Shown here: one piece after another, positions 49,482 to 51,234 of the stretch | Layout of the letters: the number at the start of each line of letters is the position of its first letter | Numbering within the stretch: the first letter of the stretch is position 1 | Position numbers and translations under genes: made by a program | Assembly (NCBI GenBank): GCA_003349915.1 | Contig: QFXE01000012.1 | Span: 1-51,234 of the forward strand | Direction of reading: 5' to 3' | DNA length: 51,234 nucleotides | Origin: an endosymbiont of Escarpia spicata | GTDB lineage: Bacteria > Pseudomonadota > Gammaproteobacteria > Chromatiales > Chromatiaceae | Notes under the pieces: generated by a model | The model's input: the letters and a program-made list of their open reading frames with translations, nothing else | Databases searched by the model: none | What the model was told of the DNA's origin: nothing

Positions 49482-49736
49482 TCATTTTTTTGTCGATGCA
49501 GGATGTTTCATTTTCATATACACACCACCGACTTTTAGTTCATGCAGCATTTGGTTTAGACGTTTTTTCTTTGTTTCTTCTTTTTTTGCACACGCTATCC
49601 AACCCAGATAGTCATTTCTTTGATATGCGGGGCGTGCCATATAATCTTGTTTTACACCATTATCCTTTAATGCTTTTTCAATATAGTCAGGCATTGGATT
49701 AAGTTTTCTTTTTAATCTCTGGTTGTCTTTTCTCAT
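49482..49736 (-). CDS. YdeI/OmpD-associated family small protein
   Basis: An 84-residue basic protein (MRKDNQRLKRKLNPMPDYIE, RPAYQRNDYLGWIACAKKEE, KRLNQMLHELKVGGVYM). This matches the C-terminal half of the YdeI/OmpD-associated or bacteriocin-protection family. Its precise function is unknown. An in-frame ATG at 49752-49754 is part of the attC core (GTTATGC), so the core could supply an alternative start adding six residues. Cassette gene with attC site 1 behind it. Confidence 0.78.
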   Translation of the reverse strand: MRKDNQRLKRKLNPMPDYIEKALKDNGVKQDYMARPAYQRNDYLGWIACAKKEETKKKRLNQMLHELKVGGVYMKMKHPASTKK

Positions 49737-49750
49737 TGATGTTTTTTTAC

Positions 49751-49878
49751 GCATAACCGTCTAGTTAAGGGGCAGCTAGCATGGAGCGGTGTTTGCGTAA
49801 TAATGGCGAAGCCATGCGCAAAAAGCCGCGGAGTGCTAGCTGTCCCAGTGAGCGAAGCGAACGCCTTGAACTGATTGT
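49751..49878 (-). other. attC site 2, interrupted by a group IIC intron
   Basis: Starts GCATAAC (plus strand) and runs 128 bp with a long palindrome (GGCAGCTAGCA pairing with TGCTAGCTGTC, and an inner ATGGCGAAGCCAT hairpin). It breaks off at TTGT (49875-49878) where the intron begins. Joining GT with TATGT after the intron (50520-50524) restores the core GTTATGT. It should be the attC of the cassette holding the 50557-50988 gene. Confidence 0.8.
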
Positions 49879-50519
49879 GTGTGCCCGGCATGGGCATGAT
49901 ATTATGAGGTGAAAGTCCTCTGTATATATTCCAGAAAGGAGACGAAAAGTCACCTTTAAAAAGTACTAGCCGATGGCAAGGGCGGAAGGGCGACCAACCG
50001 TCTGAAAGAAGCCTAAGTGCAAACCTGCGAGCTGACGAACAGAAATCGCATATAAGGCCGAACCCCTGGGTGAGTGAGCACAACATCACGAAACCCGCCT
50101 GGAGAACATGGGGGATGGTAAATGCGGCAGTTGTGCAGGGAAAGATCATGTTCTTACCCGGGGAGATCTGCCTGGCTTTGCGTCCACCGTTGGTGGGAGC
50201 GCCCCATGTAGTAATGCATGGGGTGACTGGGCAGAAGTCAGCAGATGGCATAGTAGTGGATTCTTAACAGATGAAGCGAAGGCCTGAAGCCAAGAGAGAA
50301 AATTTCGCATCATGCTCTATTCTCAGTTTGAGCCGACCGGCTCTCATAAGAGGTGATAGGCGCGCTGGTGAGTACGTTATTTTCAAAGTTAATCAAGTCT
50401 CTGTACCTTGGTTAGCTTGTCCGACTACGGTTCGACGCTTTTGGTAACCGCCATGGTACGGACCCGTATGCCTGGTGGTGTGGGAGGGAGGGGGATCAAA
50501 ACCCCCTTCCTATCCCTCT
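49879..50519 (+). mobile_element. Group IIC (attC-type) intron without reverse transcriptase gene
   Basis: The 5' end GTGTGCCCGGCATGGGC is that of group IIC introns. Further family blocks are TTCTTACCCGGGGAG (50151-50165), GCAGAAGTCAGCAG, and a domain V hairpin AACCGCCATGGTACGG / CCGTATGCCTGGTGGT (about 50446-50480), followed by a GGGGG/CCCCC domain VI. No open frame of reverse-transcriptase size exists, so it needs an intron-encoded protein in trans. It lies opposite to the cassette genes, inserted after TTGT in attC site 2, as IIC-attC introns do. The 3' border is deduced from restoration of the attC core. Confidence 0.88.
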
Positions 50520-50556
50520 TATGTTTTGATATTTATACCCACCAATATATTCTCAG

Positions 50557-50988
50557 TTACACCAGCAACACTTTAGCTGAATATACGATGAGTGTCATAC
50601 CGATAATTGCCATAAAGATATAGGTAAAAAAGAATAATTTTTTCTGTTTTTTGGAACCTACTCTAAAACCTTCTTGGCGTAGGCTAATATTTTTTACTGC
50701 TTCTCTACCTGAAGTATCAAAATAGATCGCACCAGCTAGCAATGAAATTATTGGCCACCATTCATGGTCAACTATCATAAGGAAGCCAGCTAAAGGCATC
50801 CACCCCAAAGTTAACAAATCCCAAAATGCTATATATCTTTCCAATGTTTGCACGACTGAATCTGTTTCTTTTGGATCTTCCTGAATTCCCAATCGTTGAC
50901 CTAGTTTGAAGTCAATGCTTGATATAATTTGAGCTGTATATAACAAGCCACCCAATATCAACAAAGCCCACCCAATTGCTATTTGCAC
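50557..50988 (-). CDS. Small membrane protein in an integron cassette
   Basis: A 143-residue protein with three or four hydrophobic segments (IGWALLILGGLLYTAQIISS, WPIISLLAGAIYF, LFFFTYIFMAIIGMTLIVYS). A cytoplasmic stretch contains GRLGIQEDPKETDSVVQ-like charged residues. No family is recognised. AT-rich. The gene is bounded by the intron-split attC site 2 behind it and attC site 3 in front, so it is one cassette. Possible start confirmed only by frame; function unknown. Confidence 0.68.
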   Translation of the reverse strand: MQIAIGWALLILGGLLYTAQIISSIDFKLGQRLGIQEDPKETDSVVQTLERYIAFWDLLTLGWMPLAGFLMIVDHEWWPIISLLAGAIYFDTSGREAVKNISLRQEGFRVGSKKQKKLFFFTYIFMAIIGMTLIVYSAKVLLV

Positions 50989-51007: not shown

Positions 51008-51074
51008 ACATAACGTTCAAGCTGTGCGGCGCAAGCGAAGCGCAGCGTAGATTGCGTCCGAACGAGCGCCTTGT
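51008..51074 (-). other. attC site 3, interrupted by a second group IIC intron
   Basis: Starts ACATAAC on the plus strand and matches attC site 1 closely (GTTCAAGCTGTGCGG, GCGCAGCGTA, TTGCGTCCGAAC). It ends at TTGT (51071-51074), exactly where the second intron begins, so only one side of the split core is in the window. Confidence 0.82.
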
Positions 51075-51234
51075 GTGTGCCCGGCATGGGCATGATTTTA
51101 TGGGGTGCAAGTCCCCTGTACCTTATCTGGAGAGGAGTCATTGACCCCTTTAAAAGTACTAGCTGACGGCAAGGCGCGGAAGGGTGACCGACCCGCTGAA
51201 AGAAGCCCGAGAGCAAACCTGTGAGCCGACGGAC
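51075..51234 (+). mobile_element. Second group IIC intron, 5' end only
   Basis: 160 nt beginning GTGTGCCCGGCATGGGC, clearly related to the intron at 49879 but differing at many positions. A domain I stem is GAGG/CCTC in the first copy (49906-49909 with 49917-49920) and GGGG/CCCC here (51102-51105 with 51113-51116), a compensatory change. Insertion is after TTGT in attC site 3, on the same strand as the first. The rest, including any reverse transcriptase gene, is outside the window. Confidence 0.85.

What the first reader, a model, noticed from the sequence alone, without database searches (positions are those of the whole stretch)
49879..50519. ORF-less group IIC intron inside an integron attC site
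The element has IIC-type 5' end, conserved inner blocks and domain V, but no reverse transcriptase gene in about 641 nt. It sits after TTGT in an attC, on the strand opposite to the cassette genes; removing it rebuilds the core GTTATGT. It must be mobilised or spliced with help from a protein made elsewhere, or self-splice only.
Basis: partly seen in the sequence, partly recalled or inferred. Interest (0 to 1): 0.72.

Follow-up and report, generated by a model that had tools for sequence, protein, structure and literature searches.

The report
Enzyme-less mobile intron in an integron
A short catalytic RNA intron without its own copying enzyme sits inside an integron cassette site of a bacterium related to tubeworm symbionts; relatives in other genera suggest a family of hitchhiking introns that borrow enzymes, and perhaps whole pieces, from full-length introns.

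Summary
Confirmed. Window 49879-50519 (+) is a 641-nt group IIC intron without reverse transcriptase (RT). Rfam D1-D4 models score 133 and 66 bits. It splits an integron attC at TTGT^T, opposite to the cassette genes, like IIC-attC introns. The missing RT is not a sequencing error: a 664-nt ORF-less relative, 95% identical over D3-D6, lies in an attC of Candidatus Thiodiazotropha, and cut relatives lie in three more genomes. One search found 14 RT-less copies with both ends, in 8 genomes. One single-contig genome (G040) has eight D5-D6 copies; four are 99.3-100% identical at different sites, one inside a GGDEF-EAL gene, yet its nine RT matches are only 28-43% identical to an IIC-attC RT. The copies look mosaic: an ORF-deleted 3' module (D3-D6) joined to 5' modules resembling those of RT-bearing introns. 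Best reading: a non-autonomous IIC-attC intron, spliced and mobilised in trans. The likely helper here is an RT-type intron whose ends sit at three contig ends, one in the neighbouring attC, with its interior unassembled. No splicing or mobility was tested. New variant of a known kind; the precedent is the ORF-less introns of Thermosynechococcus.

The parts
49879..50519 (+). ORF-less group IIC-attC intron, 641 nt
   Evidence: RF02001 and RF01998 over gathering scores; D5-D6 by model R1; exon junctions TTGT^TATGT read directly
49879..50190 (+). 5' module (D1); 84% identical to D1 of RT-type intron L126 and 83% to L045; end approximate
   Evidence: alignment and identities
50080..50083 (+). proposed EBS1, ACAA in a hairpin loop, complementary to IBS1 TTGT (49875-49878)
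   Evidence: read from sequence; GCACAA also read in relatives; assignment is inference
50232..50519 (+). 3' module: D3, ORF-deleted D4, D5, D6
   Evidence: trees of 5' and 3' modules; D3-D6 95% identical to the Thiodiazotropha copy (263 of 277 aligned bases, summed)
50288..50444 (+). domain IV without RT gene; holds a CCGACCGG hairpin motif, also seen near the start of the RT ORF in some RT-bearing relatives
50444..50519 (+). domains V and VI; CGC triad; one bulged U in D5
49751..49878 (.). most of the interrupted attC, ending in TTGT; the rest of the core GTTATGT follows the intron at 50520-50524
   Evidence: sequence and fold of joined flanks
50557..50988 (-). cassette ORF before the interrupted attC in cassette orientation, 143 aa, no Pfam or NCBIfam match
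49482..49754 (-). next cassette ORF, 90 aa, OmdA/YdeI-type domain (PF13376)
51008..51074 (.). second attC, interrupted at the same TTGT position
   Evidence: read
51075..51234 (+). 5' end of a second IIC intron (RT-type by its relatives), cut by the contig end; candidate helper
   Evidence: 99% identical to the C21 contig end, and 91%, 89% and 94% to L045, L126 and L046

Best explanation
It is a non-autonomous group IIC-attC intron. Its RNA keeps a catalytic core and attC-targeting parts, but D4 holds no RT/maturase gene. Shown by sequence: structure, site, absence of the ORF, relatives. Inferred: it is spliced with the help of an RT/maturase made by a related RT-bearing IIC-attC intron, and inserts by reverse splicing at TTGT^T beside the attC hairpin, the same RT making the cDNA in trans. 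In this genome the likely helper is the intron whose 5' ends lie at contig ends C23:51075 (the next attC of this window) and C21:10989 and whose 3' end lies at the start of C16. The lineage arose by loss of the RT gene, and its 5' part is exchanged with RT-bearing introns.
For: Rfam core hits. attC site at TTGT^T, opposite to the cassettes, as described for IIC-attC introns in PMC7923331 (passages). ORF-less relative in an attC of another genus. D5 keeps its pairing: the pair beside the bulged U is A-U here and U-A in L089. D5-D6 over 20 rows, RT-bearing ones included: 97.4% of cells paired (0 of 500 shuffles as high) and 12 of 23 pairs with changes on both sides (12 of 500 shuffles as high). 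14 RT-less copies with both ends, 579-991 nt, in 8 genomes, among 45 D5-D6 hits processed of the 49. G040: four copies 99.3-100% identical at different sites, one splitting a GGDEF domain between profile positions 36 and 39; the 925-codon frame is open when the flanks are joined. Ends of an RT-type intron at three contig ends of the own genome.
Against: No IIC RT is present in the assembled own genome; the hidden helper is inferred. The two relatives of the candidate helper that show RT sequence, G002:C27 (L045) and G187:C67 (L126), have RT in pieces or incomplete. The five type-A-like copies read in G001 and G002 are each cut or interrupted (L041, three places in L042, L044). RF00029 is below its gathering score. 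For the D5-D6 covariation, the number of further pair types is not unusual (74 of 500 shuffles as high). No transcript, splicing or mobility data.
Confidence: 0.72

Rival explanations
1. A dead fossil: a copy that lost its RT and no longer splices or moves.
For: The type-A-like copies read in G001 and G002 are cut or interrupted; the own-genome C18 copy loses similarity after about 250 bases; no IIC RT is assembled.
Against: The same ORF-less form is 95% identical in D3-D6 in another genus and recognisable in a third (G050, D4 115 of 146); D5 pairing is kept by a compensatory change; both splice junctions are intact. A recent local deletion would not give the same D4 in three genera.
Confidence: 0.17
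2. A self-sufficient ribozyme that splices alone, as reported for C.te.I1 of Clostridium tetani, and does not depend on an RT for splicing.
For: Core recognised by Rfam; PMC4424553 (passages) reports that C.te.I1 self-splices in vitro with no IEP-related gene in its genome; G040 and G036 hold ORF-less IIC introns and no RT close to an IIC-attC RT was found in them.
Against: Spread to new sites needs some RT for cDNA; near-identical copies in G040 imply an RT source.
Confidence: 0.11

Closest known systems
Group IIC-attC introns (S.ma.I2 and relatives; reference copies here L188 from a Shewanella plasmid, L189 from a Klebsiella plasmid)
   Same: IIC-like 5' end, TTGT before the intron, opposite orientation to the neighbouring cassette genes; TTGT/T attC site as described in PMC7923331 (passages)
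   Different: The two reference introns carry an annotated RT gene of 1350 and 1356 nt; this one has none
ORF-less TeI3 introns of Thermosynechococcus elongatus (PMC2882425, passages)
   Same: RT gene deleted from domain IV; many copies beside RT-bearing relatives; there tested in mobility assays with driver IEPs
   Different: 17 introns of one genome, derived from one deletion with clear ORF remnants; here several genera, attC targets, and apparent exchange of the 5' part with RT-bearing introns
C.te.I1 of Clostridium tetani (PMC4424553, passages)
   Same: ORF-less intron in a genome without a related IEP gene (compare G040, G036)
   Different: Called there the sole known exception; here near-identical multiple copies are seen in G040
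ORF-less group II introns of the survey PMC8919778 (passages)
   Same: 888 of 13,041 bacterial introns had no IEP, so the category is known
   Different: The passages read describe no attC-associated ORF-less group and no mosaic structure

Membership tests
Group IIC intron RNA | D1-D4 matches the group II models matched by RT-bearing IIC-attC-type introns | tested here: met
   RF02001 and RF01998 over gathering; the same pair in RT-bearing L048 and L116
Group IIC intron RNA | CGC catalytic triad in D5 (assignment to IIC recalled, from no call) | tested here: met
   ACCGCC in the window; the eight D5 of non-IIC RT introns printed read AGC, except L171, AGT
Group IIC intron RNA | general D5/D6 model RF00029 at its gathering score | tested here: not met
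   28.8 bits against 40. Not class-defining: the general model is met weakly, the family-specific model R1 gives 71 bits (window in training set)
Group IIC intron RNA | splices by group II chemistry | not testable with these tools
   needs RNA
IIC-attC introns | insertion in attC bottom strand at TTGT/T, opposite to cassette genes | tested here: met
   criterion from PMC7923331 passages
IIC-attC introns | EBS1 complementary to IBS1 TTGT | tested here: met
   ACAA loop at 50080-50083, by reading; pairing not proven
IIC-attC introns | encodes an IIC-attC RT in D4 | tested here: not met
   hence filed as an ORF-less variant, not as an autonomous member
T. elongatus-like trans-mobilised ORF-less introns | RT deletion in D4 with ORF remnants | tested here: inconclusive
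   by eye, types B and C keep CCGA(C/G)CGGG and CCAG(C/T).(T/C)TG-like stretches of the RT N-terminal coding part; type A keeps only the first motif
T. elongatus-like trans-mobilised ORF-less introns | related RT-bearing intron in the same genome | tested here: inconclusive
   ends of a related intron at three contig ends, RT not assembled
T. elongatus-like trans-mobilised ORF-less introns | mobility with RT supplied in trans | not testable with these tools
   needs a mobility assay

The most novel reading that the evidence does not exclude
A SINE-like lineage of bacterial retroelements: an ORF-deleted IIC 3' module (D3-D6) that spreads between genera, repeatedly takes D1 or D1-D2 from resident RT-bearing introns (for example by template switching of the RT from parasite to helper RNA during cDNA synthesis, which starts at the 3' end), and can be copied by non-cognate group II RTs, as in G040.
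Probability: 0.3. Interest if true: 0.78.

Novelty: new variant of a known kind. Interest (0 to 1): 0.56.

Why it matters
ORF-less group II introns in bacteria are described as rare and nearly always tied to a related RT-bearing intron in the same genome (PMC4424553, passages). Here a set of them in one bacterial family shows loss of the RT gene, apparent exchange of parts with RT-bearing introns, and near-identical copies in a single-contig genome where no RT close to the IIC-attC type was found. These are natural test cases for how RNA parasites of retroelements arise, a step assumed between group II introns and nuclear introns or SINE-like elements. The copy that splits a GGDEF domain in G040 gives a direct splicing test.

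Tried and rejected
RT hidden by a frameshift: rejected; a like D4 without RT is present in L089, L042 and L043.

Conserved small protein in D4 or on the antisense strand: frames of 55 codons or more exist in each of the 12 ORF-less copies listed, but positions and lengths do not agree by eye; no test of coding was made. The 172-aa antisense ORF at 49733-50251 is taken as chance.

The own-genome RTs at C2, C8 and C17 as cognate helpers: rejected. C2 and C8 stand beside FGE-sulfatase-fold genes, which I read as diversity-generating retroelements without testing for template repeats; C17 matches Drt8; all three are under the TIGR04416 cut-off.

Single origin of all ORF-less introns as whole elements: rejected for the 5' module (p-AU 2e-62), not rejected for the 3' module (p-AU 0.12). 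The groups were chosen after the sequences had been seen.

An empty copy of the window attC: looked for only by BLAST among loci already fetched; none found. A consensus scan of 49700-50600 put neither of its two promoter-like sites inside the intron. A loose attC scan gave 22 candidates and was not used. One pattern scan of viral contigs found none. Plasmids: 364 records match, 0 cover 80% of the query. E. coli: 10 of 5426 genomes match, none covers 80%. Papers PMC2747902 and PMC2525955, which I recall as relevant, are not held and were not seen.

Rows dropped: one search processed 45 of the 49 hits (left out: L072, the second L027, L076, L077). For one search, G005a_RT and G235_RT failed the patterns (25 of 27 rows left); the 3' tree also leaves out G005b_RT (damaged end), A_G001a_OL and G187_RTb (no D5 found), giving 22 rows. 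One search scored 150 of 1393 first-look candidates.

Full report
What is there. The window is the whole of contig C23 (51,234 bases) of a 4.06 Mb, 23-contig genome. At 49879-50519 lies a 641-nt group II intron. RF02001 (133.1 bits) and RF01998 (66.2 bits) pass their gathering scores. RF00029 reaches only 28.8 of 40 bits. A D5-D6 covariance model from 20 sequences, the window among them, gives 71 bits. D5 reads ACCGCCAUGG-UACG-GACC-CGUA-UG-CCUGGUGGU: a CGC triad, which I recall as the IIC form. The eight D5 of other RT-intron types printed read AGC there, except L171 with AGT.

Site. The 5' exon ends TTGT and the 3' exon begins TATGT; joined, they give the core GTTATGT of an attC that folds into a long imperfect hairpin. 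ORFs on both sides run on the minus strand, so the intron has the bottom-strand orientation. That is the IIC-attC habit: R'' box, TTGT/T, opposite to the cassettes (PMC7923331, passages). The next attC (51008-51074) holds a second IIC intron that starts at 51075 and is cut by the contig end. Of 17 ORF-less insertion sites tested, 11 have a strong upstream hairpin (z -2.7 or lower, mononucleotide shuffles) and 6 do not, so attC or hairpin sites are not the only targets.

No RT. No RT frame exists in the element. In the assembly three RTs are found and none passes the group II RT cut-off. C2 and C8 stand beside FGE-sulfatase-fold genes and look like DGR RTs; C17 matches Drt8 with 435 bits. But C23 and C21 end inside the 5' part of one intron type (99% identical to each other, 94% and 92% to L046 of G002), and C16 begins with D5-D6 of the type that ends L046. 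Model R1 finds two D5-D6 in the assembly. Introns with a like D1 (L126, L045) are followed by RT sequence, in pieces or incomplete. I infer a repeated RT-type intron whose interior did not assemble.

Relatives of the same type (type A). One pattern from D4 hit three records of genome contigs: endosymbiont of Lamellibrachia barhami (two places), Gammaproteobacteria isolate Bco_10, and Candidatus Thiodiazotropha sp. ex Epidulcina cf. delphinae. The first has the contig length of G001, a genome of the window's genus; hence my inference of a vestimentiferan-symbiont genus. The Thiodiazotropha copy (L089) is 664 nt and, by eye, lies in an attC. Against the window, positions 1-310 are 83% identical (256 of 309, summed), D2 36 of 43, D3 45 of 45, D4 145 of 157, D5-D6 73 of 75. 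Beside the bulged U of D5 the pair is A-U in the window and U-A in L089; D5 fragments in G178 and G174 have G-C there, and the G050 copy lacks the extra U. The other type-A-like copies, in G001, G002 and G050, are cut, interrupted or run off a contig.

Other ORF-less IIC introns. DNA matches to the window intron, many of them short, occur in 45 of 210 genomes of the family. Of 45 processed D5-D6 hits, 14 pair with a 5' end at 579-991 nt without an RT gene: window, G187, G009 (two), G036, G103, G154, G038 and G040 (six). The G154 copy gives one 34-residue RT-like match. By eye the G038 copy (579 nt) lacks part of D1. Two further copies, in G002, are only 211 and 309 nt. Relatives with a 5' end and RT matches are 1502-2002 nt (eight copies, some with broken RT); one more (L113) is 530 nt with RT remnants.

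G040, a single contig of 4.56 Mb, has eight D5-D6 above 85 bits, and two weak ones. Of the eight, five introns are 704-707 nt, two carry the same insert of about 284 nt in opposite orientations, and one is cut in D3. Four copies are 99.3-100% identical (gap columns left out) at different sites. One splits a gene with NIT, GGDEF and EAL domains inside the GGDEF domain; the 925-codon frame is open when the flanks are joined and broken by the intron. The nine RT matches in G040 are 28-43% identical to an IIC-attC RT, against 49-85% among the five IIC-attC-type RTs compared. Of the seven G040 RT loci scanned, five match RF02005, one RF01999, and one has no hit. In the RT tree the three G040 RTs and the one G036 RT that were included fall outside the IIC-attC clade (100/100). 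G036 (two contigs) has two ORF-less copies, one interrupted, and four RT matches of 31-35%. A plasmid missing from these assemblies could still carry an RT.

Mosaic structure. In a tree of D1-D3 cores (30 rows) the ORF-less label needs 5 changes, at least 4 forced by starred branches. In trees of the 5' module (25 rows), ORF-less introns as one clade are rejected (p-AU 2e-62) and type B mingles with RT-bearing introns. In the 3' module (22 rows), B and C ORF-less introns form one clade (86/84, not starred), all ORF-less as one clade is not rejected (p 0.12), and B with its RT-bearing 5' relatives as one clade is rejected (p 1.8e-4). For five of five B introns, a MaxChi-type scan puts the break at query positions 471-505, near the D2-D3 boundary, 0 of 2000 shuffles as high in each of 20 comparisons. 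The three control queries gave 14 of 2000 (G115_RT), 94 of 2000 (G038_RTb) and 0 of 2000 (C_G038_OL, itself ORF-less), so weaker mosaic signals are not confined to type B. B_G009a is 94-100% identical to an RT-bearing intron of another genus (G103_RT) in windows up to position 300, 84-96% in windows from there to 500, and 54% or less in windows at 501-600. In type A, D1 of the Thiodiazotropha copy is 90% identical to the RT-type intron L126 of its own genome and 83% to the window (31 against 10 informative sites), while its D3-D6 is 95% identical to the window. So D1 seems to have been exchanged there too. The groups were named after looking; homologous recombination and template switching could both do it.

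How it probably works. The RNA has a core and an EBS1 candidate (ACAA, 50080-50083) matching IBS1 TTGT. D4 holds a hairpin motif (CCGACCGG) shared with most type B and C copies and with the RT start of some RT-bearing introns; that it binds the RT is a guess. I propose splicing and mobility in trans by an RT of the IIC-attC family in the window's genome, and by some other RT in G040.

Literature. The ORF-less TeI3 introns of Thermosynechococcus are the model: one deletion, ORF remnants, driver IEPs that mobilise ORF-less introns (PMC2882425, passages). PMC4424553 calls bacterial ORF-less introns rare and names one exception to the rule of a related IEP (passages). PMC8919778 counts 888 introns without IEP among 13,041 (passages). 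My nine searches listed no paper that, from titles, abstracts' beginnings and the passages read, describes ORF-less IIC-attC introns or such mosaics. Two papers that I recall as relevant are not held.

Noticed in passing
L054 3108-4616 (G009) and L187 (G154:C186): Two ORF-less IIC introns stand head to tail with no exon between them (755-nt period); in G009 the second lacks its first base or two at the junction CCCGAT. The second G154 copy runs off the contig.
   Followed up: partly
L047 4594-4804 and L046 4513-4821 (both G002): Very small IIC derivatives of 211 and 309 nt with both ends but most of the inside missing.
   Followed up: no
L051 about 2225-2277 and L052 about 2492-2534 (G029); L169 (G040:C1, D5-D6 at 280925-280996): Intron 3' ends without the 5' part (D5/D6 or D3-D6 only), as incomplete cDNA synthesis would leave.
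   Followed up: no
L125 and L170 (G040): The same insert of about 284 nt sits at different places and in opposite orientation in two ORF-less introns.
   Followed up: partly
L041 and L042 (G001): Several type-A-like introns are cut by the same element end (AATACGTAAC.GAACGAAGTA), probably an IS.
   Followed up: no
L007 (G000:C17): A Drt8-like reverse transcriptase gene; 86 bases just upstream of it are 78% identical to the attC next to the window intron, so it may be an integron cassette.
   Followed up: partly
L005 and L006 (G000:C2, C8): Two RTs beside FGE-sulfatase-fold genes, likely diversity-generating retroelements; template repeats were not looked for.
   Followed up: partly
G000:C22:471-1412, C21:1142-2062, C19:13629-14564: Three integron integrases over the TIGR02249 cut-off in one genome; the C21 reading holds one TAG.
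   Followed up: no
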